Shown here one piece after another: positions 34,032 through 48,185 of a stretch of 55,237 nucleotides of DNA (the stretch's first letter is position 1; every line of letters begins with the position of its first letter). Origin of the DNA: Promicromonospora soli. Its GTDB lineage: Bacteria; Actinomycetota; Actinomycetes; Actinomycetales; Cellulomonadaceae. The notes beneath the pieces were generated by a model, which ran no database searches, was not told where the DNA came from, and saw only the letters and a program-made list of their open reading frames with translations. A program made the translations under genes and the position numbers. Location of the stretch: NCBI RefSeq assembly GCF_014653785.1, contig NZ_BNAS01000007.1, positions 153,148 to 208,384 on the forward strand, written 5' to 3'.

Positions 34032-34127
34032 CTGGGGAACCTCCGGGTCGGACTGCGGGCCGTGGCCGCGCATCTCCGGGAAGACCGTGATGATCGCCCT
34101 GGCCAGGGACCAATTCTGGGGAGCATC

Positions 34128-34229: not shown

Positions 34230-35546
34230 TCAGTACTGGTGAGCAGGTCCGCCGATCATGCCCGCGGCTACCGTCTTGTTGGTCGCCTCGTCCACGAGGA
34301 TGAACGCGCCGGTCTGCCGGTTGGACTGGTAAGGGTCCACGAAGAGCGGCTGGGTCACGCGCAGCCGGATCCGCGCCATCTCGTTCAGCTTGATCTCGGT
34401 CGCGTCCTCGTCGCGGTGCAGCGTGTTGACGTCGACGCGGTAGTTGATGTTCTTGACCATCGCCCGCGCCCACCGGGTCGTGTGCTTGATCGCGTACTTC
34501 TTGCCCTGCACCAGCGACGCCGACTCGTCCATCCAGCAGATCTGGGCGTCGATGTCCTGGGTGACCGTCGGGACGTTGTTCGGGCGGCAGATCATGTCGC
34601 CGCGCGAGATGTCGATCTCGTCCGCCAGGCGCACGGTCACCGACATGGGCGGGAACGCCTCGTCGACGGGGCCGTCGGCCGTGTCGATGGACTCGATGGT
34701 CGTCTCCAGGCCGGCCGGGAGGGCCAGCACCCGGTCGCCCGGCTTCATGACGCCGGACGAGACGGTGCCCGCGTAGCCGCGGTAGTCGCGCGCGTCGTTC
34801 TGCTGCGGCCGGATCACGTACTGCACCGGGAACCGCACGTCGACCAGGTTCCGGTCCGACGCGACGTGCAGGCGCTCGAGGTGGCTCAGCAGCGGAGAGC
34901 CGTCGAACCACGGCATGTTCTCGGACCGCGTCACCACGTTGTCGCCCGCGAGGGCGGACACCGGGATGAAGGTCAGGTCGGGCACACGCAGGCGGGAGGC
35001 GAACTCGGTGAACTCTGCGCGGATCCGCTCGAAGACCTGCTCGTCGTAGTCCACCAGGTCCATCTTGTTCACGCAGACCACCACGTGCGGCACGCCCAGG
35101 AGCGTGGCCAGGAACGTGTGCCGGCGCGACTGCTCGACGACGCCCTTGCGCGCGTCCACGAGGATGAGCGCCACGTCCGCCGTCGAGGCGCCCGTGACCA
35201 TGTTCCGCGTGTACTGGATGTGGCCTGGCGTGTCCGCGATGATGAACTTGCGCTTCGGCGTCGCGAAGTAGCGGTACGCGACGTCGATGGTGATGCCCTG
35301 CTCGCGCTCGGCGCGCAGCCCGTCCGTCAGGAGCGACAGGTCCGCGTAGTCGTTGCCGCGGTCCTTGCTGACCTGCTCCACCGACTCGAGCTGGTCGGCG
35401 AAGATCGACTTGCTGTCGAACAGCAGGCGACCGATCAGGGTGGACTTGCCGTCGTCGACCGAGCCGGCCGTCGCGAACCGCAGGAGGTCGCCGCTGACGA
35501 TCTCGTTGTGCGACTCGGGACCGGCCTCGGGGAGAGTCGTCGTCAT
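34230..35546 (-). CDS. cysN: Sulfate adenylyltransferase large subunit CysN (GTPase)
   Basis: A 438-residue GTPase subunit of ATP sulfurylase. GTP-binding motifs are visible: G1 AGSVDDGKST, G3 DTPGH, G4 NKMD; the C-terminal beta-barrel domains follow (RFPVQYVIRPQQND... YAGTVSSG). With CysD it couples GTP hydrolysis to formation of adenosine 5'-phosphosulfate (APS) from ATP and sulfate. No APS kinase domain is fused, unlike some CysNC proteins; CysC is divergently encoded at 38579. ATG overlaps the cysD stop (TGATG), indicating coupled synthesis of the two subunits. Confidence 0.95.
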   Translation of the reverse strand: MTTTLPEAGPESHNEIVSGDLLRFATAGSVDDGKSTLIGRLLFDSKSIFADQLESVEQVSKDRGNDYADLSLLTDGLRAEREQGITIDVAYRYFATPKRKFIIADTPGHIQYTRNMVTGASTADVALILVDARKGVVEQSRRHTFLATLLGVPHVVVCVNKMDLVDYDEQVFERIRAEFTEFASRLRVPDLTFIPVSALAGDNVVTRSENMPWFDGSPLLSHLERLHVASDRNLVDVRFPVQYVIRPQQNDARDYRGYAGTVSSGVMKPGDRVLALPAGLETTIESIDTADGPVDEAFPPMSVTVRLADEIDISRGDMICRPNNVPTVTQDIDAQICWMDESASLVQGKKYAIKHTTRWARAMVKNINYRVDVNTLHRDEDATEIKLNEMARIRLRVTQPLFVDPYQSNRQTGAFILVDEATNKTVAAGMIGGPAHQY

Positions 35547-36448
35547 CAGAAGTAGCCTTCCTTCTTGCGGTCCTCCATGGCGGCCTCGCTGACCTTGTCG
35601 TCGCCGCGGGTGGCGCCGCGCTCGGTCAGACGAACGGCCGCGACCTCCTCGACGACGTCGTGGAGCGTGATCGCCGTGGACTCGACGCATGCAGTGAGGT
35701 TCGCGTCGCCGACGGTGCGGTAGCGCGTGGACCTGACCTCGGCGGTCTCGCCGTCCTTGAGCGGAGTGAACTCGTTGACCTCGTAGAGCATGCCGCTGCG
35801 CTCCACGACCTCGCGCTCCTTGGCGAGGTAGAGGTCGGGCAGGTCGATGTTCTCGGCTTCGATGTACGCCCAGATGTCCAGCTCGGTCCAGTTGGACAGC
35901 GGGAACACCCGGATGGACTCGCCCTGGTGGACGCGGCCGTTGTAGAGGTTCCAGATCTCCGGGCGCTGGTTCTTCGGGTCCCACTGGCCGAAGTCGTCGC
36001 GGAAGGAGAACACGCGCTCCTTGGCGCGGGCCTTCTCCTCGTCGCGCCGGCCGCCGCCGAACAGGGCGTCGAAGCCGTGCTTCTCGGCGGCCTCCAGCAG
36101 CACCGGCGTCTGGATCCGGTTGCGCGAGCCGTTCGGCTCTTCCTGCACCAGACCGCGGTCGATCGCCTCCTGGACGGAGGCGACCACCAGCTGCACGCCC
36201 GTGCGCTCCACCCACCGGTCGCGGCAGTCGAGCACGGTCTGGAAGTTCAGGCCGGTGTCGACGTGCATGATCGGGAACGGCACCCGCGCCGGCGCGAACG
36301 CCTTCACCGCGAGGTGCAGCATGACGATGGAGTCCTTCCCGCCGGAGAACAGCAGGCACGGCCGCTGCATCTCGGCTACCACCTCACGCATGATGTGGAT
36401 GCTCTCGGCTTCCAGGCTGCGCAGCTGGCTCAGAACGTGACTCTTCAC
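35546..36448 (-). CDS. cysD: Sulfate adenylyltransferase small subunit CysD
   Basis: A 300-residue adenylyltransferase. The PP-loop SGGKDS (residues 35-40), the conserved GLNFQTVLDCRDRW, FGGGRRDEEKARAKERVFSFRDDFGQWDPKNQRPEIWNLYNG block and FPLSNWTELDIWAYI are all present. It catalyses formation of APS with CysN. The GTG start overlaps the cysQ stop (GTGA), placing it second in the leftward cysQ-cysD-cysN operon. Confidence 0.95.
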   Translation of the reverse strand: MKSHVLSQLRSLEAESIHIMREVVAEMQRPCLLFSGGKDSIVMLHLAVKAFAPARVPFPIMHVDTGLNFQTVLDCRDRWVERTGVQLVVASVQEAIDRGLVQEEPNGSRNRIQTPVLLEAAEKHGFDALFGGGRRDEEKARAKERVFSFRDDFGQWDPKNQRPEIWNLYNGRVHQGESIRVFPLSNWTELDIWAYIEAENIDLPDLYLAKEREVVERSGMLYEVNEFTPLKDGETAEVRSTRYRTVGDANLTACVESTAITLHDVVEEVAAVRLTERGATRGDDKVSEAAMEDRKKEGYF

Positions 36449-37326
36449 GACTGGGCACCTTCCTTGCTATCTGCCCCGACCACGGACGCGACACCAACGG
36501 TGTCGAGCAGCTCACGCAGGCGCGGAGCCAGTGCCGGGGGGCATACGAACAGGTCAGGGAGCCAGGGGCTCTCCCGGTTGTACACGAGCTCGGATCCGTC
36601 GAGGCGGGTGCAGACGAGGCCTCGGGACCGTGCAACGGCTACAGGGGCCGCAGAGTCCCACTCGTACTGCCCACCCCCGTGGACGTAAGCGTCAACTGTA
36701 CCGTCGGCGACCGCCATCATCTTGACGCCCGCTGAGCCCATCGGCACCAGCTCGACGTCGTCGCGCTCGGCCAGGGCGGCCACGAACTCCGGCGGGCGGC
36801 TGCGGCTCGCCGCGATCCGCAGGGGGCGGCTCCCGGCCAGGACTGCGGCACTGTCGTCGTCCGGCACGACGCCGTCCGAGGTGGCCAGAACCTGCTGACG
36901 CGCAGGCAGGGCGACTGCGCCGACGGTGAGCCCGACGCCGCGCTCCCAGAGCGCGACGTGGACGGCGAAGTCGTCCCGCCACTGCCCGGCCAGCGGGCCG
37001 TCGACGTACCGCTCGGCGAACTCGCGGGTGCCGTCGAGGGGGTCGATGATCCACACACGATCTGCACGGGTGCGGGACGCATCGTCCTTCGCCTCTTCCG
37101 AGAGGACGGCGTCGGCGGGCCGGGCGGCGGTCAGCGCGGCCGCGAGCCACGCCTGAGCTGCGGCATCACCCGCGTCCTTGAGCTCCTTCGCGACGAAGGA
37201 GCCGCCGGCGGCGTCGACCTCGGCGCGGAGCGCGAGGAGCACCCCCGCCGCTCCCGAGGCGAGTGCGTGGGCGAGGGCGTCATCATCGAGCGACGCCTGA
37301 GGGAGCGTGGGGGACGGCGCGTTCAT
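36445..37326 (-). CDS. cysQ: CysQ-type 3'-phosphoadenosine-5'-phosphate (PAP) phosphatase / inositol monophosphatase-like
   Basis: A 293-residue inositol-monophosphatase-superfamily protein. The metal-binding motif VWIIDPLDGTREFAERY and the upstream acidic pair in VLSEEAKDD are present, and YEWDSAAPVAVARSRGL is the second conserved motif. CysQ enzymes remove the 3'-phosphate from PAP, the product of sulfotransfer or PAPS reduction. As first gene of a cysQ-cysD-cysN operon, and with a sulfotransferase gene near by, PAP recycling is the most likely role; an inositol-phosphate substrate cannot be excluded. ATG at 37326 with GGAG upstream. Confidence 0.88.
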   Translation of the reverse strand: MNAPSPTLPQASLDDDALAHALASGAAGVLLALRAEVDAAGGSFVAKELKDAGDAAAQAWLAAALTAARPADAVLSEEAKDDASRTRADRVWIIDPLDGTREFAERYVDGPLAGQWRDDFAVHVALWERGVGLTVGAVALPARQQVLATSDGVVPDDDSAAVLAGSRPLRIAASRSRPPEFVAALAERDDVELVPMGSAGVKMMAVADGTVDAYVHGGGQYEWDSAAPVAVARSRGLVCTRLDGSELVYNRESPWLPDLFVCPPALAPRLRELLDTVGVASVVGADSKEGAQS

Positions 37327-37497
37327 CGATCTCCAGGGTGGACGTCTTCTCCGGCGATCCAGCCGTTCCTGCAGGCGCTCGACAAGGAGCCAAGGTGCCG
37401 TGGGCGAAGTCCGGTGGACGCGCCGAGGCTACCATTCCGGCATGCGATCCAGCGTCTGCGGACCCGTACAGACCCCTACCGGCCCCAGGAGGCGTTA

Positions 37498-37569
37498 ATG
37501 CCTACTATCCCGATGGGGTTGATCGGAATAAGGGGATTCCGCGCGCTTCCCGGGGGATGCCCGCCATGA
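37498..37569 (+). CDS. Candidate 23-residue leader ORF before the TSUP gene
   Basis: A small frame begins at an ATG with a perfect AGGAGG (37487-37492) five bases upstream, the best ribosome binding site of the divergent region. It encodes MPTIPMGLIGIRGFRALPGG-CPP and its TGA overlaps the ATG of the TSUP transporter (ATGA at 37566-37569). The TSUP binding site (GGGGGA, 37552-37557) lies inside the small frame. A translationally coupled leader, possibly sensing the sulfur or cysteine state, is plausible; the peptide has only one Cys. Confidence 0.5.
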   Translation: MPTIPMGLIGIRGFRALPGGCPP

Positions 37570-38582
37570 GCATCGAGATCCCCCTGGTCCTCGGCGGCCT
37601 CGCGGTCGGGTTCATCGTCGGCCTGACGGGGATGGGCGGCGGCGCCCTCATGACGCCGATGCTCATCTTCGTGTTCCGCATCGACCCGCTCGTGGCGGTC
37701 TCCAGCGACGTTGTCGCCAGCCTCTTCATGAAGCCGGCGGGCGCCATCGTGCACCTGCGGCGCAGGACGGTGAACCTGAAGCTGGTCCTGTGGCTGTGCG
37801 TGGGCTCGGTCCCCGCCGCGTTCTCCGGCGCCCTGCTCATCCAGTGGCTGCCGTTCGGCGACTCCCTCGACGCAGCGCTCCAGAGGGTGCTCGGGGTGGC
37901 CCTTCTCATCGCGTCCGGCGGTCTCGTGGTCCGCGCCGTGCTGCAGATGGTGCGGGAGCGCTCCGCGTTCGGCGAGGGTCCTGCCAAGCCGTCCGCCCCG
38001 CGTGAGCTGGTGGTGCGACCGGTCCCCACCGTGATCCTCGGCGCCGTGGCCGGGCTCCTGGTCGGCATCACGTCGGTCGGCGCGGGTTCGGTGGTCATCG
38101 TCGTGCTCCTGCTGCTCTACCCGGCGCTCAAGGCGTCCCAGCTGGTCGGCACCGACCTGGTCCAGGCGGTGCCGCTCGTCGCGGCGGCGTCGCTGGGGCA
38201 CATCCTGTACGGCGACTTCTCGCTCGGCCTGACGACGTCCCTCCTCATCGGCGCCATCCCCGGCGCCTGGTTCGGCGCCCACGTGTCCTCGCGCGCGCCG
38301 GGCGGCATCATCCGCCGCGCCCTGGCGATCCTGCTGCTGGCGTCCGCGCTCAAGCTGCTCGGTGCGAGCCTCCCTGTGGTGCTGGGCGCCGCGGGTGCCG
38401 CGCTGGTCGGCGGTAACCTGGTCTGGTTCTGGGTCAAGCGCCGCTTTGGCGTCGCGCCCGCAGCGGGCTCGGCTCCGGCGGGGCGCGGCGAAGGCGCCGC
38501 GGACGACCCAGCGGTCGGCACCGCGGACGAGCCGGCCGGCGAACCAGCAGACGACAAAGCAGAAACGAGCCCCCGCGCATGA
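37566..38582 (+). CDS. TSUP-family (TauE/SafE-like) permease
   Basis: A 338-residue membrane permease. About eight TM helices in two repeats: the first starts GFIVGLTGMGGGALMTPMLI, the second GAVAGLLVGITSVGAGSVVIVVLLLLYPAL, the duplicated glycine-rich motif of the family. The C-terminal ~35 residues are acidic and disordered (DDPAVGTADEPAGEPADDK). TSUP proteins move sulfur-containing anions; beside CysD/CysN/CysC, sulfate import is the best guess. It is preceded by a candidate leader ORF, and its stop overlaps the cysC-like ATG (ATGA at 38579). Confidence 0.85.
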   Translation: MSIEIPLVLGGLAVGFIVGLTGMGGGALMTPMLIFVFRIDPLVAVSSDVVASLFMKPAGAIVHLRRRTVNLKLVLWLCVGSVPAAFSGALLIQWLPFGDSLDAALQRVLGVALLIASGGLVVRAVLQMVRERSAFGEGPAKPSAPRELVVRPVPTVILGAVAGLLVGITSVGAGSVVIVVLLLLYPALKASQLVGTDLVQAVPLVAAASLGHILYGDFSLGLTTSLLIGAIPGAWFGAHVSSRAPGGIIRRALAILLLASALKLLGASLPVVLGAAGAALVGGNLVWFWVKRRFGVAPAAGSAPAGRGEGAADDPAVGTADEPAGEPADDKAETSPRA

Positions 38583-39895
38583 CCGACCTTCCCGCCCGCG
38601 TCCTGACCGACGACGAGCTCGACCTCCTCGAGCTGGCCCTCGGCGGTGCCGTCGCGCCGTCGGTGCTCGCGGCCACCTGGCCGGACGCTCCGGCCGATGT
38701 CCGGGGTCCCCGCGGAGGCCCGCAGCGAAGCAAGGACTCCGTGGGGTGGGGTGTTGTGCTGACCGACGCCGAGAACACCCCGCTCGCCCGCCTCACGGTG
38801 CGCCCCGGCGATGTGCCCGACGCCGTCGACGCGCTCAAGCCGATGCCGCCGGCGATCGGCCCGCAGTGGGACGCCGCCGTGCGCCGCCCGGCCCGTGAGG
38901 TCCGCGCAGAGCTCGAGGCCGGGGCGGGCGCGGGCTCGCCGCAAGCGCTCAGCCTGCTCGTCACCGAGGTCCCTACGCGCGAGGAGACCGACGCCGCCGT
39001 GCGGCTGGCCGCGGGCTCCGACGCCGTGCTGCTGTTCGTGCCGGCCGCGCGCCGCACCCCGGAGCCGGGCACCGTCGGCGCCCCCGGTCTGGTGCGGGCG
39101 GTCACGGGGCTGGCCGGCACCCTGGCCGAGCGCACCGGGGCGCGGGTGAGCACCGTCGTCGTGCCATGGTCCGGCCTGGGTGGCGTGACGCTGGAAGAGG
39201 TGGCGGCCGCGTACGGCGCCACCCGCGCCGACACGCTCGCGGCACATCGCTCGCCGGCCACCGCGGCGGCCGTCTCGGGCCTCGCTCACGTCCGGGACAA
39301 CGCCGTTGCCGCCCTCTACCCTCCGGCCTCCGCCGCCGAGGTGGCACGCGCCGCGAGCAGCGGCCACCGCCAGGGCATCGTAGTGTTCTTCACGGGCCTG
39401 TCGGGCTCGGGCAAGTCGACGGTGGCCCGCGCCCTGGCAGCCGAGCTGGAGGACGATGGCCTGCAGACCACAGTGCTCGACGGCGACGCGGTGCGCCACC
39501 ACCTGTCGAAGGGCCTCGGGTTCGACCGCGAGTCCCGCGAGACCAACGTGGAGCGCATCGGCTACGTCGCGGCGCTCGTGGCCAAGCACGGCGGCATCGC
39601 GGTTGCGGCACCGATCGCGCCGTTCGCGGCGGGCCGAGCGAAGGTGCGGGCCCTGGCCGAGGAGGCCGGCGCGCGCTTCGTCCTGGTACACATCAGCACA
39701 CCGCTGGCGGTGTGCGAGGCGCGCGACCGCAAGGGCTTCTACGCCCGGGCGCGTGCCGGCGAGATCGCCGAGTTCACGGGCATCTCCTCGCCCTACGAGG
39801 AGCCGGAAGACGCAGATCTCGTCATCGATACCTCTGTCGTGTCCATCGACGCGGCGGTGAGCGCCGTCCGCACTCACATCATCGCGGCCGGGTGA
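38579..39895 (+). CDS. cysC: Adenylylsulfate kinase (CysC) with degenerate N-terminal ATP-sulfurylase-like domain
   Basis: A 438-residue fusion. The C-terminal ~170 residues are a complete APS kinase: Walker A GLSGSGKST (273-281), TVLDGDAVRHHLSKGLGFDRESRETNVERIGYVA, the Asp-Gly region and RDRKGFYARARAGEI. It converts APS to PAPS. The N-terminal ~265 residues resemble a shrunken ATP sulfurylase: LTDDELDLLELALGGAVAP looks like the PUA-like start, and PWSGLGGVTLEEVAAAYGATRADT like the end of the catalytic domain, but the catalytic HxxH-type motif is not visible and the region is about 130 residues short of a full Sat. Overlaps the TSUP stop (ATGA). Confidence 0.88.
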   Translation: MTDLPARVLTDDELDLLELALGGAVAPSVLAATWPDAPADVRGPRGGPQRSKDSVGWGVVLTDAENTPLARLTVRPGDVPDAVDALKPMPPAIGPQWDAAVRRPAREVRAELEAGAGAGSPQALSLLVTEVPTREETDAAVRLAAGSDAVLLFVPAARRTPEPGTVGAPGLVRAVTGLAGTLAERTGARVSTVVVPWSGLGGVTLEEVAAAYGATRADTLAAHRSPATAAAVSGLAHVRDNAVAALYPPASAAEVARAASSGHRQGIVVFFTGLSGSGKSTVARALAAELEDDGLQTTVLDGDAVRHHLSKGLGFDRESRETNVERIGYVAALVAKHGGIAVAAPIAPFAAGRAKVRALAEEAGARFVLVHISTPLAVCEARDRKGFYARARAGEIAEFTGISSPYEEPEDADLVIDTSVVSIDAAVSAVRTHIIAAG

Positions 39896-39903
39896 AAGAC
39901 GCC

Positions 39904-39969
39904 ATGCCCGAACTCCCGCAACTGCCAGGCGCAGCAAGCGATCCGATCAACCTGGAGATCACCGGATGA
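39904..39969 (+). CDS. Possible 21-residue ORF before the sulfotransferase gene
   Basis: A short frame, MPELPQLPGAASDPINLEI-TG, begins eight bases after the cysC stop and ends with a TGA overlapping the sulfotransferase ATG (ATGA at 39966-39969). No strong Shine-Dalgarno precedes it (GAAAG at best), and the sulfotransferase has GGAG of its own, so this is weaker than the two other leader candidates. Confidence 0.2.
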   Translation: MPELPQLPGAASDPINLEITG

Positions 39970-41342
39970 GCACGACGAGAACACTGGACTGGCAACAGGG
40001 CTTCGCCCGGGGCAAGGCGACCGGCGCGAAGTGGCGGGGCGCGTTCGGCCCCCCGGTGGTCGGTCGCAACCGCAGGGATGACCTGCTCCAAGAATTCTCG
40101 GACCTCATGGTCCGACATGCCCGCGGCGAGGAGATACCCGCGAGCAACGTGCAGTCCGTGCGCCGGCTGGCGATCGCAAAGCGGCACCGCGACTGGGACG
40201 GGCTGATCCTCGCCGTCGTCTCCACGCTGGCCACCGCCTTCGGCAACAAGCCGGCCCGGGCCTGGGTGCCCGTCCTGCTCGCCGCCGCCGGCAGGTTCGA
40301 CGAGGTGGTCGACGCGGAGCCCGAGTTCGTCACCAACGGCCCGGAGTACCAGGACTGGCTGGTCGTCGTCACGGCCCTCGCGAAGGCGGGCCGCGAGGAC
40401 CTGGCCCACGCCCTCGTGGACAGGCTCACCGCACACTTCCCGCCGGGCGAGGGGGCGAGCCTGACCGTCTGGGGCGACGACAGCCTCTCCAAGGAGTTCG
40501 CGCGGCTGCATCAGCAGGCGCCCGGCGGCGCCGCCCTGCCCGTGTTCTTCCATCTCCCGTTCTCCGGCGGCACCAGCATGATCGTGTCGCTCAAGCGCCT
40601 CATGCCGTGGGGCCGCATGCTGGAGATCAACCGGCGCCAGGGCCTCCTGCAGATCGAGCACGCGCTCCAGATGTCGGCGGAGGACTCCGGGCGGCTGATG
40701 ATGGTCCATCAGCACCACCCGTTCGCCTTCCAGCTGCCCGGGCGCGAGCTCAGCCACTTCACTGTGCTCCGCGACCCCGTCTCGCAGATCAGGTCGGGCT
40801 ACTTCAAGCGCCTCTCCACCCCCGGCATCGTGCCGACGCGCGACGAGTCCCCGACGTTCGACCAGCACGTCGACTACACGATCGAGCACGGAATGACGAA
40901 CATGCTGGCCCGCCAGATCGTGACCACGCACCCCGCCCTGCTCAAGGCGTACCGCACGCAGTTCCCGGCCTCCCGCTCCGGGAAGTTCGAGGCCATCGGT
41001 GCCGAGGAGGACATGTTCTGGCTCAGCGCTACCTCGGAGCTGAGCGAGGACGCCCTGCTGCGCATGTGCCGCGAGACGCTCGACGAGCGGTTCCACCTGG
41101 TCGGAACCATGCGGCACCTCGAGGCCAGCCACATAGCGGCCACGGCCTCGACCGGTTCGTACGCCGCCGACCGGGTGGGCCACCGCGGCCGGTCCGGTCA
41201 GCCCGAGCGGAGCGAAGACGAGTCCGACGCCGCACGCCGGCTGCGCGAGGCGAACGGCGTCGACCAGGTCCTGTACGACGAGTACACCGCGCGGTTCGAG
41301 CGGGACTACGCACCCCTCATCGAGCTCGTCGCATCGCACTGA
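39966..41342 (+). CDS. Sulfotransferase-like protein (PAPS-dependent), with helical N-terminal extension
   Basis: A 458-residue protein. From about residue 194, FFHLPFSGGTSM resembles the 5'-phosphosulfate-binding loop (HIPKTGGTS-type) of Sulfotransfer_2-like enzymes, and FTVLRDPVSQIRSGYFKR (265-282) matches the 3'-phosphate-binding block. The first ~190 residues are helical, possibly repeat-like, and match no domain I recognise. Directly following cysC, it would use PAPS to sulfate an acceptor, most plausibly a surface glycan made by the nearby genes; the acceptor is not known. Ends in two tandem hairpins shared with the convergent ABC gene. Confidence 0.8.
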   Translation: MSTTRTLDWQQGFARGKATGAKWRGAFGPPVVGRNRRDDLLQEFSDLMVRHARGEEIPASNVQSVRRLAIAKRHRDWDGLILAVVSTLATAFGNKPARAWVPVLLAAAGRFDEVVDAEPEFVTNGPEYQDWLVVVTALAKAGREDLAHALVDRLTAHFPPGEGASLTVWGDDSLSKEFARLHQQAPGGAALPVFFHLPFSGGTSMIVSLKRLMPWGRMLEINRRQGLLQIEHALQMSAEDSGRLMMVHQHHPFAFQLPGRELSHFTVLRDPVSQIRSGYFKRLSTPGIVPTRDESPTFDQHVDYTIEHGMTNMLARQIVTTHPALLKAYRTQFPASRSGKFEAIGAEEDMFWLSATSELSEDALLRMCRETLDERFHLVGTMRHLEASHIAATASTGSYAADRVGHRGRSGQPERSEDESDAARRLREANGVDQVLYDEYTARFERDYAPLIELVASH

Positions 41343-41462: not shown

Positions 41463-42446
41463 TCAGGACCCGGCGGGCTGCCCCTGGGCGCCGACCTTTC
41501 GGGCGTTGCCCTTGCCGCCGCCGTTCCGGGCGCCTGCCCGTCCGCCGGCCCTGGGGCCCCTGCGGCCGGGCGGCCGCTGGTCGCGGATGTACTCCTTGTA
41601 GCTCTCGGCCACCTCGTGCGTCGGGCCGTCCATCACGAGCTTGCCCTGGTGCACCCAGAGCACTCGTGTGCACATCGCCTCGACGGTCGAGATCGAGTGG
41701 CTGACCAGGAACACCGTCCCGGCGTTCTGGCGTACCTCCTCGATCCGCGCCTTCGACCGCGCCTTGAACGCGGCGTCTCCGGTGGCGAGCGCCTCGTCGA
41801 TCATCAGGATCTCCGGGGACGCCGCCGAGGAGATGGCGAAGCGCAGCCGGGCGGCCATGCCGGACGAGTAGGTCTTCATCGGGAGGTACACGAAGTCGCC
41901 GATCCCGGCGAACTCCACGACCTCGTCGAAGCGCTCCTCGACCTGCTTGGGCGTGAGCCCGAGAGCCAGACCACCGATCATGATGTTCTGCTCGCCGCTC
42001 AGCTGCGGCATGAGCGCCGCGTTGACGCCGAGCAGTGACGGCTCACCCGACACGTGAACGCTGCCCGACGCCGGCGGCATCAAGCCGGCGATCGCCCGCA
42101 GCAGCGTGCTCTTTCCCGAGCCGTTGACGCCCACGATCCCCACCGACTCGCCGTGCCGGACCGTGAACGAGATGCCCCGCACGGCGTGCACCTCGCTCAC
42201 CCCGCCGGTGTGCTGGCGGCCTGCGCTGACCAGTCGCTTGAGGAACGAGGGCTTGATCTGCGCCTCGCGGACCTCGGCGCCCTTCGCCGCTTCCTTGCGT
42301 GCCCGGCTGCCGACCACGCGGTAGACGACGTGGAGGTCGTCCACGACCAGGCAGGGATCGCCGATCGGGGTCTCGGGTGCCGTCTCTTCCAGGTCCTCGG
42401 GCTCGAGCTCGAGGTCGAAGTCCATGTGTGCGTCGGCCTCAGTCAC
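41463..42446 (-). CDS. ABC transporter ATP-binding protein for polysaccharide export (Wzt/TagH-like)
   Basis: A 327-residue ATPase of the O-antigen/teichoic-acid export type. Walker A GVNGSGKST, signature YSSGMAARLRFAIS, Walker B LMIDEALATGD and the H-loop FLVSHS are present, with the teichoic-acid-export pattern of a long region (about 30-60) preceding the ATPase. The C-terminal tail is Gly/Arg-rich (RRGPRAGGRAGARNGGG) and lacks the carbohydrate-binding domain of some Wzt proteins. The GTG at 42446 overlaps the permease end by 8 bases; AGGAGAGG lies upstream. With the permease, it exports a finished lipid-linked glycan. Confidence 0.93.
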   Translation of the reverse strand: MTEADAHMDFDLELEPEDLEETAPETPIGDPCLVVDDLHVVYRVVGSRARKEAAKGAEVREAQIKPSFLKRLVSAGRQHTGGVSEVHAVRGISFTVRHGESVGIVGVNGSGKSTLLRAIAGLMPPASGSVHVSGEPSLLGVNAALMPQLSGEQNIMIGGLALGLTPKQVEERFDEVVEFAGIGDFVYLPMKTYSSGMAARLRFAISSAASPEILMIDEALATGDAAFKARSKARIEEVRQNAGTVFLVSHSISTVEAMCTRVLWVHQGKLVMDGPTHEVAESYKEYIRDQRPPGRRGPRAGGRAGARNGGGKGNARKVGAQGQPAGS

Positions 42447-43434
42447 GTCCGTACCTCTCCTCGCCCCGCCAGAAGATGACGAAGCCGATCGCGAAGAACA
42501 CCACTGCCCACGCCGCTCCGAGCGCCCACATCAGCCCGCTCTGCGGGATGCTCTCCTCCTGCGTCAGGCAGGACCGGACGAGGTAGAGGAAGACCGCCAC
42601 AGGCTGGTACTCCAGGATCCCGCCTACCACGACCTTGGCGCCCTCGGAGATGTTCATCCGCTCGAGGTAGCCGGCGAGCGGGAAGATCACGCCGGAGCCG
42701 TACATCACCACCCGCATCACGAAGCCGATGATGTTGTCCAGGTCCGGCGTGGTGGCCACGATCCGGGCCATGATGAAAGCGAGCCCGGTGTTGAAGATCC
42801 ACAGGAGCACGACGGCCGCTGGCAGGAGCAGCCACCACCAGGTGACCGTCATCGTCTGGTACCCGGGGAGGAGCCCACTGAGTAGCACGATGACGCACAT
42901 GACGACGAGCGCCGGCAAGAGCGTCGCCAGGAGCGAGAGCACCGTGGACATGGGCAGCACAGCTCTCGGGAAGTGCAGGGAGCGCAGCAGCTGCGTCTTT
43001 CCGCTGATCGACTTGGCGCCGCCGGTCACCGACGACTCGATGAACCGGAAGATGAAGACGCCGATCACGATGAAGGCGATCGAGTTCCCCACGTGCCGGT
43101 TCACGCCCAGCAGGATCCCGAAGATCAGCACGTAGACGGCGGCGTTGAGGATCGGGTTCAGGACGGCCCAGAGCTGACCGAGGTAGTTGCCCTGGTTCCT
43201 CGCATAGGCGGTGGAGGTCGCCAGTGTGCGAATGAAGGACCAGCGGCCCATCAGGTCCCGGATGTACTCCAGGAGCGGTGGGCGGACGTTCAGCCGGCGA
43301 AGGCCGTACTGCTTCGCCAGCGCCATCCGCTCTTCCGACGTCGTGTCGGGCTCCAGCGGCGGCGGTGGTTGTGGCGTGCCGCCGCGCACAGGGCGGACAC
43401 CGGCTGCGGCCGCATCGGTGGTGGGTGTGCTCAC
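42439..43434 (-). CDS. ABC-2 type polysaccharide export permease (TagG/Wzm-like)
   Basis: A 331-residue integral membrane permease. A proline-rich cytoplasmic N-terminus (about 1-60) leads to six TM segments with the polysaccharide-exporter motif of the ABC-2 family (GNYLGQLWAVLNPILNAAVYVLIFGILLG; SLHFPRAVLP). It forms the channel for the ATPase at 41463. GTG start at 43434. It is divergent from the polysialyltransferase-like gene, with a 154-bp gap that holds a pair of 9-bp inverted sites. Confidence 0.93.
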   Translation of the reverse strand: MSTPTTDAAAAGVRPVRGGTPQPPPPLEPDTTSEERMALAKQYGLRRLNVRPPLLEYIRDLMGRWSFIRTLATSTAYARNQGNYLGQLWAVLNPILNAAVYVLIFGILLGVNRHVGNSIAFIVIGVFIFRFIESSVTGGAKSISGKTQLLRSLHFPRAVLPMSTVLSLLATLLPALVVMCVIVLLSGLLPGYQTMTVTWWWLLLPAAVVLLWIFNTGLAFIMARIVATTPDLDNIIGFVMRVVMYGSGVIFPLAGYLERMNISEGAKVVVGGILEYQPVAVFLYLVRSCLTQEESIPQSGLMWALGAAWAVVFFAIGFVIFWRGEERYGRD

Positions 43435-43588: not shown

Positions 43589-44644
43589 GTGCCGACCGCC
43601 CACCACAATTCGCCTCATCCGACGGGGCCTGCGGGCGCACTGGTCGAGTCGCCGCTCCAGCTTCTCTGCACCATCGAGGCCCATGCCGCGGGGCTCGGCG
43701 GGACCCCGACTCGCGTCCATGTGCGCGACGACGTCCCCGCGCTGGACGACGCCCTGGACGAGGTACGGCGTTTCGGGCTGCCCGAGGGGTTCGCGGCCGA
43801 CCTGGGCGGACGGCGCGCTGCGCTCACCGCTCACGAACCGGTCTGGCTGGTCGGCGACGCCTTCTCCGGCCTGTTCCAGGCGACGGCGCCCCTGCGGCGC
43901 GGCCTGACCCACGTCGTTCTCGTCGACGACGGGCTCGCCACTCTCGACCTGGCCCGACGGCTGGCGGAACGCGAACCGCTGGTCCGCCCGCGCGCCACGG
44001 CCGGCGCGGCACGCCGCCGACTAGGCACCGTCGCCGCCCGCCGGCTGCGGGACCTCGCCGCCGACGGACGCGCGACCCTGTTCACGGCGCTGCCCCTCGA
44101 CGCGGGTGTCAGCGACCGCCTGCGCGCACAAGGATTCGAGCTGGTGCGGAACGAGTTCACCTGGCTCGCCCACGCTCCGGCCGGTGACGCCCCGGCCGAG
44201 CCGACGGTGGTCATCGGCTCCGCCCTCGCCGCCGACGGGCTGATCGACACCGACAGCTATGTGGAGTGGGTCCGGTCGCTCGCGGCAGACGGCCCGTTGC
44301 GCTACCTCCCGCATCGCCGCGAGCGGAACGAGGCACTGACCAGGCTCTCCGCGATCGACGGGCTGGTACTCGACGCGGCAGGGGCCCCGGTAGAGCTACG
44401 CTTGCGCGGCATGGCGGCATCGCAGCGCGTCGTCAGTCTCCCATCCACGGCAGCCGTACTCCTGACCACGATCCTCGCCCCCCGGGGCGTGGCGGTCACG
44501 CCGCAGGCCGTGCCGGACCGCTGGTGGACCGATCGCGCGGCACCGAGCTTGCGCGCGCACCTCTCGAGCGTGCTCCGGCTCGCGGCGGAGACCCGCGCCG
44601 CCGGAACCGGACCCGACTCGACCTACCCGGAGGACCACGGATGA
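43589..44644 (+). CDS. Polysialyltransferase-like glycosyltransferase (alpha-2,8-polyST family)
   Basis: A 351-residue protein. The opening ALVESPLQLLCTIEAHA resembles the start of the alpha-2,8-polysialyltransferase family. The conserved features PLRYLPHRRERNE and VVSLPSTAAVLLTTIL (HP/E and S-x-S-like motifs) appear later. It would transfer a CMP-activated nonulosonic sugar; with NeuB and a CMP-sugar synthetase 4 kb away, the donor is plausibly CMP-sialic-type acid. GTG start; the ATG of the next gene overlaps its stop (ATGA). Family placement is from memory of motifs; moderate certainty. Confidence 0.68.
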   Translation: MPTAHHNSPHPTGPAGALVESPLQLLCTIEAHAAGLGGTPTRVHVRDDVPALDDALDEVRRFGLPEGFAADLGGRRAALTAHEPVWLVGDAFSGLFQATAPLRRGLTHVVLVDDGLATLDLARRLAEREPLVRPRATAGAARRRLGTVAARRLRDLAADGRATLFTALPLDAGVSDRLRAQGFELVRNEFTWLAHAPAGDAPAEPTVVIGSALAADGLIDTDSYVEWVRSLAADGPLRYLPHRRERNEALTRLSAIDGLVLDAAGAPVELRLRGMAASQRVVSLPSTAAVLLTTILAPRGVAVTPQAVPDRWWTDRAAPSLRAHLSSVLRLAAETRAAGTGPDSTYPEDHG

Positions 44645-45873
44645 CCATCCGCGTGCTCGCCGTCGCGGACAGCGACTCCTACCTCAAGTGGGCGTGCTCG
44701 ACGCTCGACAGCCTCGGCGCGCCCGACGCCCCGCTGGAGCGATCGGCCGTCCTGATCAGCACTCCGATCGTGCCCACCACGAGCCAGATCGCGGCCGCCG
44801 TCGCCGGTTCCTCCGTGGTGCGCCCGCACGTGCTGAGCCTGCGCGCCCTGAAGCAGCACGTCCGGGACGCCAAGCCCGACGTCGTGCTGGTCGCCGCGAC
44901 CGGGCCGGTCGCGGAGATGGTTGCTCGCACGGTTGTCCGGGCGGACCCGCAGCGGCGGCCCGCCCTCGTCACCGGCCTGCCGGGCATGGCCCTGCCGGCC
45001 ACGCCGCGCGGCACGGCATGGCGCCGCTGGTGCGACGCGTTCGTCGTGCACAGCCGCCGGGAGCGCCTGGCCTACCAGGACGCGTTCGCCGCCCACGGCG
45101 TCGAGCCGCACGTGGTACTGACCCATCTGCCGTTCCTGGAGCGGAACGCCACCATGACGCCGAAGCCCATCGAGCGCGTCGTGTTCGCCGCCCAGGCCAA
45201 GGTGCCCGCCGGGCGCACCGAACGCCTCCGCCTGCTCGACGGCCTGGCGAACATCGCCAACGAAGGCTTCGACGTGATCGTCAAGCTCCGCGCCCGCAAG
45301 GGTGAGCGGCAGACGCACAACGAGGAGCACCCCTACGACGACCTGTGGGAGGCCGAGCACGCACGGCTCGGCCATCCGGCCGGCGCCCTGCGCTTCGTGG
45401 ACGGCCCCATGGCCGAGTGGCTGCAGTCCGGCACGGCCCTCGTGACCGTCAGCTCGACGGCGGCGCTCGAGTCGCTGGCCCTGAACCTGCCGACCGCCCT
45501 GGTCGACGACTTCGGCGTCTCCGACGAGCTCCTCAACGAGCCCTTCGCGGGCAGCGGCTGCCTCGTAGCCCTCGCGGACGCCGGCAAGCTCTTCCGCGAG
45601 AGCGGCCCCGTGCCCGACGCCGCGTGGCTGGACGAGAACTACCTGCACAGCAGCGACTCGGAGCTGCCTGACGTCGTCTCGGCCCTCGCCGCGCAGCGTG
45701 CGGACGGCACGCTGCGCGAGCTGCCGGACGTGCGCCCCTGGCTGTGGCCACGGCACGTGCGGGTGCTGCTGCAGTCGGTGCTGCCGGCCCCGGTCTACCA
45801 GGCCATCCTGGTCGTCGGTCGCCCGGTCAAGCGGGTGCTCGGCGGGGCAGCGCCGTCGCTCGAGAACCGGTAG
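44641..45873 (+). CDS. DUF6716-type putative glycosyltransferase
   Basis: A 410-residue GT-B-like protein of the kind often adjacent to the polysialyltransferase-like gene in actinobacterial sialic-acid clusters. It starts MTIRVLAVADSDSYLKWACSTLDSL, and the C-terminal half has MAEWLQSGTALVTVSSTAALESLALNLPTALVDDFGVSDELLNEPF, reminiscent of a nucleotide-sugar-binding domain. The exact reaction is unknown. Its start overlaps the upstream stop (ATGA), so the two are co-translated. A perfect 11-bp inverted repeat follows. Confidence 0.72.
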   Translation: MTIRVLAVADSDSYLKWACSTLDSLGAPDAPLERSAVLISTPIVPTTSQIAAAVAGSSVVRPHVLSLRALKQHVRDAKPDVVLVAATGPVAEMVARTVVRADPQRRPALVTGLPGMALPATPRGTAWRRWCDAFVVHSRRERLAYQDAFAAHGVEPHVVLTHLPFLERNATMTPKPIERVVFAAQAKVPAGRTERLRLLDGLANIANEGFDVIVKLRARKGERQTHNEEHPYDDLWEAEHARLGHPAGALRFVDGPMAEWLQSGTALVTVSSTAALESLALNLPTALVDDFGVSDELLNEPFAGSGCLVALADAGKLFRESGPVPDAAWLDENYLHSSDSELPDVVSALAAQRADGTLRELPDVRPWLWPRHVRVLLQSVLPAPVYQAILVVGRPVKRVLGGAAPSLENR

Positions 45874-45989: not shown

Positions 45990-46970
45990 ATGAAACGTGC
46001 TCTGATCAGCACCGCAGCTCTCACTCTGTCGCTCCTGACCGCCGGCGCGGGGACCGCCGTCGCCGCGGACGTCCCGGACCCCAGCGCGTCGCCTTCGCCG
46101 AGCATCTCCCCTTCGCCGTCCCCCAGCGCAGAGCCCGACGCCGATGTCATGGCGCTGGAACCGACACTCGGGCTGGCCCCGAACTTCACGTGCGACGAGG
46201 ACCCGTCCGACGACTTCCAGATCCCGCAGGACGGGGACGGAGTCACCTACACCCTTGAGGACGGCATCTTCACCGCCGCGCTGGAGGAAGGGTACGTGTG
46301 GGGAGAGGGGCCAGTGAACTGGGACCCCTGGACCGATCCCATCTACGAGGAGCCGCCGTACATCGAGCCGGAGCCTGGCACCACGGACCCGTACGTCAGG
46401 GCGGTCGCCGACTACGCGTTCCCGAACTGCAACCACAACGACGAGACGACCGTCAACGTGACGACCGAGTGCACGGACGGCATGGGCTACCTCGTGTACG
46501 ACATCGACGCGTGGTGGGCGACCGACGAGACCAGCGTCGCCATCTACCCCTACACCTCGGACGAGGCTGCCCAGGGGCGCACCGTCTATGACGGCAACAC
46601 GCTGTCCGGCCGGCTTGCCTGGGACGGCAGCACACCCGGCATGACCGGTCCGATCGCTGTGGGGTACGGGGACGAGATCTACGATCCGGAGGAGACTGCG
46701 GTAAGCGACCCCATCTTCTGGATCCACACAGGCGAGGGCCGGGACATCCATGAAGCGCTGGCCATGCTCCGCTTCGAGTCCGCCGACCCGTGCCTCGGCG
46801 TCGACGGCGGAACTGGCGACGGTGAGGGTGAGGGTGCGGCCGACGGCTCCGACGACGACGAGCTCGCCGCGACCGGCCCCGAGGCCGCGTGGCTCACGGC
46901 CGGCGTCGCCGCGCTGCTGGTGGCCGCGGGCGCCGCGCTCGTCGTCGTACGTCGCCGCCTGGGCGCCTGA
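45990..46970 (+). CDS. Sortase-anchored secreted protein with Ser/Pro linker
   Basis: A 326-residue cell-wall protein. Signal peptide (MKRALISTAALTLSLLTAG) cut near AVAAD, then a SPSPSISPSPSPS linker, an acidic domain without recognised family (rich in Asp, Trp, Pro and a few Cys) and a C-terminal sorting signal: LAATG (variant of LPxTG), hydrophobic helix and RRRLGA tail. LAxTG motifs fit the class E sortases of actinobacteria. Start at 45990 with GGAAG upstream. Function unknown. It ends in a strong bidirectional hairpin. Confidence 0.82.
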   Translation: MKRALISTAALTLSLLTAGAGTAVAADVPDPSASPSPSISPSPSPSAEPDADVMALEPTLGLAPNFTCDEDPSDDFQIPQDGDGVTYTLEDGIFTAALEEGYVWGEGPVNWDPWTDPIYEEPPYIEPEPGTTDPYVRAVADYAFPNCNHNDETTVNVTTECTDGMGYLVYDIDAWWATDETSVAIYPYTSDEAAQGRTVYDGNTLSGRLAWDGSTPGMTGPIAVGYGDEIYDPEETAVSDPIFWIHTGEGRDIHEALAMLRFESADPCLGVDGGTGDGEGEGAADGSDDDELAATGPEAAWLTAGVAALLVAAGAALVVVRRRLGA

Positions 46971-47035: not shown

Positions 47036-48079
47036 TCAGACGCCGTCGTCGGTCCGGACCCGCTCGGTGAGGCCGCGCAGGAAACCCGCCCCCCACGCCA
47101 TGTGCATGGTCATGAGCGTGACGGGCAGTGCGAGGGCTGAACGCAGGTCCAGCCGTGGGCTGCGGGTCGCGGCGTGCGCCGAGGCGGCGAGGACGCCCAG
47201 CAGGTAGGTGGCTGGGGCCACGAGGCCGACCACCACCAGAGGCAGCAGGCCCGCTATCGCGCCGCCGACGGCAAGCAGGACCGACGTGCCGAGCACGACG
47301 ACGGCGGTCGGCGGGGCGAGGTAGCGCAGGTTCGCGGTGCCGGGGTTGCGGCGCACCACCTCGCGACGCCACATGCCGGTACGCCAGAACTGCGTGGCGA
47401 CGGCGCCGAGCGTGCGACGCGGCTTGTACTGGACCACGAGCGACGGGTCGAACCACAGCAGGCTGCCGCTGTTCCGCAGGCGCAGGCACAGCTCCCAGTC
47501 CTGGGCCCGCACGTACACGGGCGAGTACCCGCCCACGCGCTCCAGCGCCTCACGGCGGAACGTGCCCAGGTAGACCGTCTCGGCTGGGCCGGCACTGCCG
47601 CCCGTGTGGAACGACGCGGCGCCCAGACCTGCCGGGTGGCTCATCGCGCGCGCCACGGCCTTCTGGACGGGGGTGTCGCCGACGGGAAGCATCTGCCCGC
47701 CCACGCCGTCGGCCCCCGCGGCCTGGAGAGCCTCCACCGCGCGGCGCACGTACGTGGGCTCGGCCACCGTGTGGCCGTCCACGCGTACGAAGATCGAATG
47801 TCCCTCGGGCATGCGCTCCAGGCCTGCGTTCAGGCCGAGCGGCTTGGAGCCCGTCGGGTTGTCCACGACGGTGACGCGACCCGTCTCGACCGCGAGCTTG
47901 TCCGCGATCTCGCGGGTCCGGTCCTTGGAGGGGCCCACCGCGATCACCATGTGCAGCGGATGCGGGTAGTCCTGGCCCAGGATCGACCGCACCATCGCCT
48001 CGAGGTAGGGCTCCTCGTCACGTACGACGGCGACCACCGTCACCAACGGCATGCTCGCCGCATCTACCCGCTCGGGCAC
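47036..48079 (-). CDS. Glycosyltransferase family 2 (ExoA-like) with C-terminal membrane helices
   Basis: A 347-residue GT2 enzyme. GT-A signatures are VTVVAVVRDEEPYLEAMVRSILGQDYP, FVRVDGHT (DxD-like) and AQDWELCLRLR (catalytic ED-x). The C-terminal ~110 residues form three or more TM helices (LGTSVLLAVGGAIAGLLPLVVVGLVAP). Such proteins extend glycans on lipid carriers. The GTG at 48079 has GAGAGGGGG upstream; an ATG at 48052 (MPLVTVV) is an alternative, and a longer frame upstream is rejected. Reads leftward, probably with neuB and neuA. Confidence 0.87.
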   Translation of the reverse strand: MPERVDAASMPLVTVVAVVRDEEPYLEAMVRSILGQDYPHPLHMVIAVGPSKDRTREIADKLAVETGRVTVVDNPTGSKPLGLNAGLERMPEGHSIFVRVDGHTVAEPTYVRRAVEALQAAGADGVGGQMLPVGDTPVQKAVARAMSHPAGLGAASFHTGGSAGPAETVYLGTFRREALERVGGYSPVYVRAQDWELCLRLRNSGSLLWFDPSLVVQYKPRRTLGAVATQFWRTGMWRREVVRRNPGTANLRYLAPPTAVVVLGTSVLLAVGGAIAGLLPLVVVGLVAPATYLLGVLAASAHAATRSPRLDLRSALALPVTLMTMHMAWGAGFLRGLTERVRTDDGV

Positions 48080-48153
48080 GAGGCCCCCTCTCGCGATGGC
48101 TGGGCCGCTGCGGCCCGTGCGTTCCCCTGAACCTGCCGGACCGGGGAACATCA

Positions 48154-48185
48154 GAGGCGGGCACCGCACGTGCGGCGCCCGCCTC
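48154..48185 (-). terminator. GC-rich hairpin between neuB and the GT2 gene
   Basis: GAGGCGGGC-x-CCGCA and its complement TGCGG-x-GCCCGCCTC form a 15-bp stem with one mismatch, with a CG turn at the centre. It lies downstream of neuB (stop 48324) and upstream of the GT2 start, so it may end or attenuate the neuB transcript. Confidence 0.5.

What the first reader, a model, noticed from the sequence alone, without database searches (positions are those of the whole stretch)
34230..41342. A complete sulfation module next to glycan genes, without a visible sulfate-reduction branch
The block has sulfate import (TSUP), APS formation (CysD, CysN), PAPS formation (CysC), a PAPS-using sulfotransferase and a PAP phosphatase (CysQ). 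None of the assimilatory reduction genes (cysH, sulfite reductase) is in the cluster. PAP clearance by CysQ is needed after sulfotransfer. Seen in sequence: the genes and their divergent layout. Known: the chemistry. Inferred: that the module feeds sulfation of a surface glycan. Sulfated wall glycans outside mycobacteria would be little described.
Basis: partly seen in the sequence, partly recalled or inferred. Interest (0 to 1): 0.82.

Follow-up and report, generated by a model that had tools for sequence, protein, structure and literature searches.

The report
Sulfated sialic-acid-type wall polymer locus
This stretch of a soil actinobacterium's genome most likely builds a sulfated sialic-acid-like (Kdn) sugar polymer for the cell wall, and related species differ by swapping the part that carries the sulfating enzyme, which would link genes to a wall sugar so far described chemically.

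Summary
The six genes are real and lie as stated. The inferred sulfated surface glycan is supported; a self-contained sulfation module is not. The genome (Promicromonospora-like) has one ATP sulfurylase, the window's CysDN, while cysH and sulfite reductase lie on another contig, so CysDN must also feed assimilation.

The block sits in a wall-polymer locus with NeuB, a CMP-nonulosonate synthetase/phosphatase, pyruvyl transferase, glycosyltransferases and Wzm/Wzt. A review passage gives such a polymer for Promicromonospora citrea: Kdn teichulosonic acid with glucose-3-sulfate and pyruvylated Kdn.

In 13 genus genomes the locus is conserved, but the sulfotransferase occurs in 6. Its presence follows the neighbouring exporter/glycosyltransferase cassette exactly (one branch, 100/100) and cuts across the left flank and an unlinked marker; the right flank alone is inconclusive. 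This looks like a swapped polymer cassette.

The sulfotransferase is a remote Sulfotransfer_2 relative that keeps the 3'-phosphate site and histidine but has Phe for the PSB-loop Lys in 7 of 7 members. Its activity is untested; both structure predictions failed.

The parts
34230..35549 (-). CysN, GTPase subunit of ATP sulfurylase (439 aa)
   Evidence: TIGR02034 579.9 bits, cut-off 336.1; found in 13 of 13 genus genomes
35546..36448 (-). CysD, catalytic subunit of ATP sulfurylase; only copy found in the genome
   Evidence: TIGR02039 429 bits; PF01507 finds only this and CysH in the genome; PF01747 finds none
36445..37326 (-). CysQ-like PAP phosphatase
   Evidence: PF00459; best NCBIfam model is CysQ TIGR01331, under its cut-off
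37557..38582 (+). TSUP/TauE-family membrane protein, presumed sulfate or sulfite carrier; direction unknown
   Evidence: PF01925 148 bits; no match in G064 and G111, both ST-negative, nor in the gapped G128
38579..39895 (+). CysC, APS kinase domain at residues 265-417 behind an unassigned 260-residue N-terminal domain
   Evidence: PF01583 198.5 bits; one full-score match per genome in 13 of 13
39966..41342 (+). 458-aa sulfotransferase (ST): TPR-like N-terminal part, Sulfotransfer_2-like C-terminal domain from about residue 190
   Evidence: tblastn to 'sulfotransferase family 2' E 3e-5; hhalign 97.5%, E 5.7e-12 in a single-pair comparison; motifs
41463..42446 (-). Wzt-type ATPase of a polysaccharide ABC exporter, part of the swapped cassette
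   Evidence: PF00005 79 bits; cassette tree
42439..43434 (-). Wzm-type permease of the exporter, part of the swapped cassette
   Evidence: PF01061 27.6 bits, cut-off 26.9; cassette tree
43589..44644 (+). GTpoly: probable CMP-nonulosonate (polysialyltransferase-like) transferase, part of the swapped cassette
   Evidence: VDDG motif invariant in 12 of 12 rows (G128 fragment left out), H of the HP motif kept (motifs from passages of PMC2169525); no Pfam hit
44641..45873 (+). DUF6716 putative glycosyltransferase, part of the swapped cassette
   Evidence: PF20471 395 bits
45990..46970 (+). secreted protein (signal and C-terminal anchor by eye), matched in 4 of the 6 ST-positive genomes and in no ST-negative one
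   Evidence: no Pfam family
47036..48169 (-). GT2 glycosyltransferase, outside the swapped part
   Evidence: PF13641, PF00535
48324..49217 (-). NeuB-family nonulosonate (likely Kdn-9-phosphate) synthase
   Evidence: PF03102 282 bits; NCBIfam NnaB model matched under its cut-off; 13 of 13 genus genomes
49275..50516 (-). CMP-nonulosonate synthetase fused to a KdsC/Kdn-9-phosphatase-like domain
   Evidence: PF02348; NF058599 and KdsC models, under cut-off
50682..52943 (+). polysaccharide pyruvyl transferase with TPR-like N-terminal part
   Evidence: PF04230 67 bits
31836..34073 (-). membrane O-acyltransferase with SGNH domain (OatA-like)
   Evidence: PF01757, PF19040

Best explanation
The window carries the genus's single sulfate-activation locus (cysQDN / TSUP-cysC) joined to a wall-polymer locus that makes a Kdn teichulosonic acid. 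CysDN makes APS. Part of it goes to the reductase CysH (APS type by its cysteines) and the sulfite reductase encoded elsewhere, for cysteine. CysC turns the rest into PAPS. The 458-aa sulfotransferase uses PAPS to put sulfate on a sugar of the polymer, most likely the glucose at O-3 as in the P. citrea polymer, before export by Wzm/Wzt, and CysQ removes the PAP. The sulfotransferase belongs to one of two allelic cassettes (ST, wzt, wzm, GTpoly, DUF6716) that are exchanged between species, so sulfated and presumably unsulfated polymer types alternate in the genus. Shown here: the genes, the single ATP sulfurylase, the homology, the cassette linkage. Inferred: the polymer, the sulfation site, the order and place of the steps, the unsulfated state of the other type.
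For: Gene families. One CysD, no Sat, and cysH-sir on another contig without cysDN in the 11 kb listed. CysH: CC and CxxC in 13 of 13 rows; APS-reductase model 205.6 bits against 175.1 for PAPS reductase, both under cut-off. ST relation to Sulfotransfer_2 and through those relatives to heparan sulfate 6-O- and 2-O-sulfotransferase structures. Kdn teichulosonic acid with Glc-3-sulfate and pyruvylated Kdn in P. citrea (passage in PMC6801904). Cassette tree splits ST-positive from ST-negative on one 100/100 branch; backbone needs 5 label changes, AU p 3e-6; unlinked CysH+Sir needs 6, AU p 2e-8; left flank 5, p 4e-8. Identity within positive / within negative / between: GTpoly 87/92/63, DUF6716 86/91/67, against CysQ 90/90/90, GT2 91/93/90, CysH 90/90/90, G031 and G048 set apart. 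In another genus the ST lies among GT61, pyruvyl-transferase/LicD and glycerophosphotransferase genes, with no window cys gene matched in the 20 kb.
Against: The PSB-loop Lys of sulfotransferases is Phe in all 7 members, so transfer chemistry is not assured. No Pfam sulfotransferase model matches the ST. Both structure predictions failed. The right flank alone does not reject one clade (AU p 0.118). The ST lies 120 bases from wzt, so linkage alone could carry it along. The chemistry is from another strain and was read second-hand. CysDN, CysQ and CysC persist without this ST in 7 of 13 genomes. The only CysH models over cut-off are the general cysH one and one named phosphoadenylyl-sulfate reductase, so a need of PAPS for reduction is not excluded. 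The P of the HP motif in GTpoly is missing.
Confidence: 0.72

Rival explanations
1. The cys genes are only the housekeeping sulfate-activation locus of the genus, serving assimilation and several unrelated sulfotransferases; the 458-aa gene lies beside them by chance or for shared regulation.
For: One CysD and one full-score CysC per genome in 13 of 13; 7 of 13 lack this ST; 2-8 Sulfotransfer_3 matches in each of the 13.
Against: The locus adjoins polymer genes in the genus, and the ST follows the polymer cassette without exception in 13 genomes. The housekeeping role is true as well; the two readings are not exclusive.
Confidence: 0.15
2. The 458-aa protein is not an active sulfotransferase: without the PSB lysine it binds PAP or PAPS, or the polymer, as a regulator or scaffold.
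For: Phe at the PSB lysine in 7 of 7, Lys in 9 of 9 plasmid or chromosomal relatives and in both viral ones. In NDST1 this lysine is described as catalytic acid (passages of PMC3733922).
Against: His250, Arg269 and Ser277 are invariant in 12 of 12 rows; dN/dS 0.16-0.40 among the five closest rows, so the gene is kept; a sulfated polymer is reported in the genus.
Confidence: 0.15
3. The sulfotransferase acts on another product of the cassette, such as the secreted protein at 45990-46970 or a lipid carrier, rather than on the wall polymer.
For: The secreted protein too was matched in ST-positive genomes only, 4 of 6.
Against: Two of 6 ST-positive genomes, G031 and the gapped G128, gave no match to that protein; in G072 the ST lies among glycan genes.
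Confidence: 0.1
4. Co-variation of ST and cassette is hitch-hiking in one recombination tract and says nothing on function.
For: ST and wzt are 120 bases apart; the divergence between groups runs from about 39.9 to 47.0 kb without a break.
Against: cysC, 70 bases away on the other side, is kept in every genome; no discordant genome in 13, with 4 independent contrasts on well-supported branches of the unlinked tree. This does not exclude it.
Confidence: 0.3

Closest known systems
Kdn teichulosonic acid of Promicromonospora citrea 665T (Dmitrenok 2017, known here only from a passage in PMC6801904)
   Same: Kdn, pyruvate ketal and sulfate ester in one wall polymer; the locus has NeuB, CMP-synthetase/phosphatase, pyruvyl transferase, PAPS genes and ST; same genus
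   Different: Chemistry only in that passage, no genes named; another strain; whether the window is P. citrea is unknown
Streptomyces coelicolor teichulosonic acid cluster SCO4873-SCO4882 (passages of PMC13011467)
   Same: Genes for a Kdn wall polymer in an actinobacterium
   Different: The S. coelicolor polymer is described as Gal-Kdn with GlcNAc or methyl (passages of PMC11481543 and PMC7831098), and the word stem 'sulf' does not occur in either main text; gene-by-gene comparison not done here
Cobetia marina KMM 1449 and Vibrio sp. KMM 8419 sulfated capsule clusters (passages of PMC11766843, PMC11641403)
   Same: cysN, cysD, cysC (in Cobetia also cysQ and a sulfate permease) with an ABC exporter, glycosyltransferases and sulfotransferase genes; region 4 of the related Vibrio strain KMM 8434 lacks a sulfotransferase gene
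   Different: Gram-negative capsules; Vibrio has second copies of cysNDC, here CysDN is the only copy found
Actinoplanes missouriensis wps-1 cluster (passages of PMC13390465)
   Same: Actinobacterial polysaccharide cluster with predicted sulfotransferases
   Different: Wzx/Wzy type; no nonulosonate genes mentioned in the passages seen; product not determined
Sulfotransfer_2 proteins, heparan sulfate 2-O- and 6-O-sulfotransferases
   Same: PSB-loop frame HxPxxGGTS, histidine, 3'-PB motif RDPVxxxxS
   Different: PSB Lys replaced by Phe; extra TPR-like N-terminal part

Membership tests
PAPS-dependent carbohydrate sulfotransferase (Sulfotransfer_2) | 5'-PSB loop with its lysine | tested here: not met
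   Loop frame kept, Lys replaced by Phe199 in 7 of 7; Lys in 9 of 9 relatives and 2 of 2 viral ones
PAPS-dependent carbohydrate sulfotransferase (Sulfotransfer_2) | 3'-phosphate site: Arg and Ser of RDPxxxxxxS | tested here: met
   Arg269 and Ser277 invariant in 12 of 12 rows and in the 4 rows; the roles of the residues are recalled
PAPS-dependent carbohydrate sulfotransferase (Sulfotransfer_2) | Catalytic histidine after the PSB loop | tested here: met
   His250 column invariant in 12 of 12; not aligned to a histidine in the viral L111 row; its role is partly recalled, partly from the NDST1 passages
PAPS-dependent carbohydrate sulfotransferase (Sulfotransfer_2) | Match to the family model | tested here: not met
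   No Pfam sulfotransferase model up to E 10 for the window protein or three relatives; profile comparison with family members 97.5%, E 5.7e-12
PAPS-dependent carbohydrate sulfotransferase (Sulfotransfer_2) | Sulfotransferase fold | tested here: inconclusive
   AlphaFold2 mean pLDDT 53.0 and 38.3; no fold search run
Kdn teichulosonic acid biosynthesis | NeuB-type synthase and CMP-nonulosonate synthetase | tested here: met
   PF03102 and PF02348 over cut-off in neither, one or both as listed: PF03102 282.5 bits (cut-off 22.1), PF02348 70.6 bits (cut-off 22.6); NnaB, KdsC and Kdn-9-phosphatase models matched under cut-off
Kdn teichulosonic acid biosynthesis | CMP-nonulosonate transferase motifs D/E-D/E-G and HP | tested here: inconclusive
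   VDDG invariant in 12 of 12 rows (G128 fragment left out); H kept, P replaced by R; motifs from passages of PMC2169525
Kdn teichulosonic acid biosynthesis | Product is a Kdn polymer of the wall | not testable with these tools
   Needs wall analysis
Dedicated sulfation module (own PAPS genes besides those of assimilation) | ATP sulfurylase separate from the assimilatory one | tested here: not met
   Only one CysD, no Sat found in the genome; no cysDN in the 11 kb listed around cysH-sir
Assimilatory sulfate-reduction operon | cysH and sulfite reductase in the block | tested here: not met
   CysH and the sulfite reductase beside it are on contig C3

The most novel reading that the evidence does not exclude
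The genus keeps an old two-allele polymorphism in its wall polymer: a sulfating and a non-sulfating cassette exchanged between species like capsule serotypes, driven by surface-binding enemies (phages, or lectin-guided toxins that use wall glycopolymers as receptors). The sulfating allele uses a sulfotransferase lineage that works without the PSB-loop lysine.
Probability: 0.35. Interest if true: 0.78.

Novelty: new variant of a known kind. Interest (0 to 1): 0.6.

Why it matters
It offers genes for a chemically described sulfated wall polymer of a Gram-positive genus and makes the assignment directly testable. It suggests sulfation as a swappable trait of an actinobacterial wall polymer, fed by a sulfate-activation locus shared with cysteine synthesis. 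It also points to a sulfotransferase lineage that lacks a residue held to be catalytic. Wall glycopolymers are receptors of umbrella toxins in Streptomyces (passages of PMC13274773), so such swapping may bear on warfare between soil bacteria; that last point is speculation.

Tried and rejected
Searches translated four loci on the wrong strand (all three proteins were wrong-strand); they were repeated correctly, and nothing rests on the wrong ones. The first structure prediction (mean pLDDT 53.0; helical N-terminal half resolved, catalytic half not) and the second (38.3) were too poor for a fold search, so none was run. Profile A2 against solved structures hit repeat proteins (PPR, TPR) through the N-terminal half and one unrelated aldolase at E 0.53, no sulfotransferase. 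The unassigned N-terminal domain of CysC looked to me like a decayed ATP sulfurylase, but no solved structure matched better than E 0.2 and no Pfam family; left open. PF03567 gave nothing in the genus, but nothing rang in the controls either, so that is no evidence. Viral contigs gave two remote relatives and none more; phage records gave none for the bridging protein L074. The ST profile is rare: 7 of 221 family genomes; 3 of 396 phylum genomes, namely the own one plus two weak partial matches. The paper with the P. citrea chemistry is not held. The independent-pairs sign test used one label for both traits and is uninformative; only the number of contrasts is used. The OatA_a and OatA_b rows mix paralogues and were kept out of the trees.


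Full report
What is there. CysN, CysD and CysQ run leftward with 4-base overlaps. TSUP and CysC run rightward with a 4-base overlap, and the 458-aa gene follows after 70 bases. Rightward of it lie an ABC exporter (Wzt, Wzm), a polysialyltransferase-like protein, a DUF6716 glycosyltransferase, a secreted protein, a GT2 glycosyltransferase, NeuB, a CMP-nonulosonate synthetase fused to a KdsC-like phosphatase, a polysaccharide pyruvyl transferase and an acyltransferase. Leftward lie an acyltransferase, a subtilase-like protein and another acyltransferase (of the acyltransferases and the subtilase only the one at 31836-34073 was run against Pfam, the others are named by eye). The window is the end of contig C7 of a 5.38-Mb genome. 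The only named match to the 458-aa protein in genome contigs is Promicromonospora kroppenstedtii, 73% identical, so the window's genus is taken as Promicromonospora; the tool warns that records very near the window may be left out.

The missing reduction branch. The whole genome has one CysD (the window's) and one CysH on contig C3, no match to the Sat-type ATP sulfurylase model, and a sulfite/nitrite reductase gene directly beside cysH on C3 (a third NIR_SIR match, on C2 in an 893-aa frame, was not examined). Next to these on C3 lies a CysG-like gene and no cysDN in the 11 kb listed. So the reduction branch exists and, as far as found, depends on the window's CysDN. CysH has CC and CxxC cysteine pairs in 13 of 13 genus rows. 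It scores higher as APS reductase (205.6 bits) than as PAPS reductase (175.1), both under their cut-offs; the general cysH model and one named phosphoadenylyl-sulfate reductase are over theirs. Taking the cysteine pairs as the APS-type mark rests on recalled knowledge. On that reading PAPS and CysC are needed for sulfation alone. CysDN and CysC are not specific to this sulfotransferase: 13 of 13 genus genomes have one full-score CysC and one CysD (in G077 and G117 two further weak matches each to the APS kinase model; in G031 CysD is matched in two pieces). In 11 of the 13 the two lie a few kb apart on one contig; in the draft genomes G048 and G128 they fall on separate contigs. Each of the 13 also has 2 to 8 Sulfotransfer_3 matches.

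The 458-aa protein. No sulfotransferase family of Pfam (up to E 10) and no NCBIfam or PHROGs family matched; its relatives show weak TPR matches in the N-terminal half. Against plasmids, tblastn found 26 records, all Priestia; each of the 20 listed is annotated sulfotransferase family 2, best E 3e-5 over residues 165-304. A profile of the C-terminal halves of its 7 known members matches a profile of 8 such proteins with 97.5% probability, E 5.7e-12, in a single-pair comparison. Of those 8, four are Priestia proteins and four were reached through L074, a protein that the ST profile found at E 7.8e-5 in another genus of the phylum; the 8 were picked from 39 plasmid records. Five of them were run against Pfam: four are over the PF03567 cut-off, the fifth just under. 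Their profile hits heparan sulfate 6-O-sulfotransferase (5.9e-18) and 2-O-sulfotransferase (1.2e-12) structures. In the 12-row alignment His250, Arg269 and Ser277 are invariant; in the smaller alignment with two viral relatives Arg and Ser hold, but L111 has no histidine there. The PSB-loop lysine is Phe in all 7 members, against Lys in 9 of 9 relatives and both viral ones. That lysine is described as catalytic acid in NDST1 (passages of PMC3733922). The gene is under purifying selection among the five closest rows, dN/dS 0.16-0.40; pairs with the two distant members give 0.53-0.87. Two structure predictions failed. I conclude: a remote Sulfotransfer_2 lineage with an altered PSB loop, probably active, not shown to be.

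The sugar polymer. NeuB and the synthetase/phosphatase fit Kdn made through the 9-phosphate (inference; the Kdn-9-phosphatase model is under its cut-off). The GTpoly protein has an invariant VDDG in 12 of 12 rows, the G128 fragment left out, and keeps the H, not the P, of the HP motif (motifs from passages of PMC2169525). A passage in the review PMC6801904, citing Dmitrenok 2017, gives for the P. citrea 665T wall a Kdn teichulosonic acid with the unit 6-Glc-(1-6)-Glc-3-sulfate-(1-4)-7,9-pyruvyl-Kdn, besides a pyruvylated, acetylated galactan, and for Promicromonospora sp. VKM Ac-1028 a pyruvylated teichuronic acid-like polymer. Kdn, pyruvate and sulfate match the locus part by part. The original paper is not held. 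My searches that could have shown a gene assignment for this polymer showed none for Promicromonospora in their listings; subscription journals are mostly absent from the library, so this is weak.

The swapped cassette. In the 13 genomes held for the genus the locus keeps its order (exceptions in the observation check), but the ST is present in 6 (G000, G006, G031, G097, G123, G128) and not found in 7 by whole-genome search. In the ST-negative genomes the matched ends of cysC and wzt are 157-279 bases apart. A tree of wzt, wzm, GTpoly and DUF6716 parts the two groups on one branch with 100/100 support. A tree of seven flanking genes (CysQ in 12 rows, NeuA in 11, the rest in 13) needs 5 changes of the label and rejects one clade (AU p 3e-6). 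An unlinked marker, CysH (13 rows) plus part of sulfite reductase (12 rows), needs 6 (p 2e-8), the left flank 5 (p 4e-8); the right flank needs 4 but does not reject one clade (p 0.118). Protein identities within positive, within negative and between groups are 87, 92, 63 for GTpoly, 86, 91, 67 for DUF6716, 89, 86, 77 for Wzm and 90, 93, 83 for Wzt, against 90, 90, 90 for CysQ, 91, 93, 90 for GT2 and 90, 90, 90 for CysH; the outlying genomes G031 and G048 were set apart in these means. G031's Wzm is nearer to the ST-negative type (73 against 69). CysC is slightly split (78, 85, 76). In a DNA profile against 3 ST-positive and 4 ST-negative genomes, a drop shared by the four negative and not the three positive runs from about 39.9 to 47.0 kb; a few other windows are low in both groups. 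Both alleles have a deep-branching member (G031, G048), which are sisters in the backbone tree, so the two types look old. The downstream pyruvyl transferase also differs: 79% and 71% to the window's in G006 and G097, 65-74% in pieces in G128, none between NeuA and the next gene in G031 and G123, and 27-56% in 6 of the 7 ST-negative genomes, with none found in the stretch read of G064. In the one other genus with the ST (G072) it lies among GT61, pyruvyl-transferase/LicD and glycerophosphotransferase genes, about 25 kb from that genome's DUF6716 gene. Physical linkage could explain the co-variation by itself; the other-genus context and the polymer chemistry argue that it is functional.

Mechanism. 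Sulfate enters (TSUP, direction not shown), CysDN makes APS, APS goes either to CysH or to CysC, the ST sulfates the polymer repeat, Wzm/Wzt export it, and CysQ clears PAP. That sulfation is cytoplasmic is inferred from the need for PAPS; no localisation test was run.

Known systems. Cobetia and Vibrio capsules show the same gene logic (passages of PMC11766843 and PMC11641403), Vibrio with second copies of cysNDC. Streptomyces coelicolor has a teichulosonic acid cluster SCO4873-SCO4882 (passages of PMC13011467). Actinoplanes wps-1 is a predicted sulfated exopolysaccharide cluster (passages of PMC13390465). What is different here is the single shared ATP sulfurylase, the ST lineage without the PSB lysine, and the exchange of cassettes with and without the sulfotransferase.

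Verdict. Observation confirmed; interpretation partly supported. A new variant of a known kind; interest 0.6.

Noticed in passing
window 38579-39370: N-terminal 260 residues of CysC match no Pfam family or solved structure and vary much between genomes; to my eye they resemble a decayed ATP sulfurylase.
   Followed up: partly
window 45990-46970: Secreted protein with a C-terminal anchor (by eye), matched in 4 of 6 ST-positive genomes and in no ST-negative one.
   Followed up: partly
L069 12900-13800 (G031): CysD is matched in two pieces in different open frames, a frameshift or assembly error, in an ST-positive genome; described only.
   Followed up: no
L064 and L072 (G111, G064): TSUP gene not found between cysQ and cysC, nor the acyltransferase left of cysN, in two genomes, both ST-negative.
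   Followed up: no
   Followed up: partly
13 genus genomes: Each genome has 2-8 Sulfotransfer_3 matches elsewhere, so PAPS probably has several users.
   Followed up: no
window 17724-19046 and L073 5512-6828: Nramp-like transporter genes (the window's named by eye) lie within tens of kb of the polymer genes both in the window and in the other genus with the ST.
   Followed up: no
L112-L121, L059, L062, L063: The pyruvyl transferase downstream of NeuA differs between ST-positive and ST-negative genomes, and six ST-negative genomes show two or three matches, which hints at a second variable module.
   Followed up: partly
L004 (G000:C2:271244-271660): A further nitrite/sulfite-reductase match in an 893-aa open frame on another contig, not examined.
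   Followed up: no
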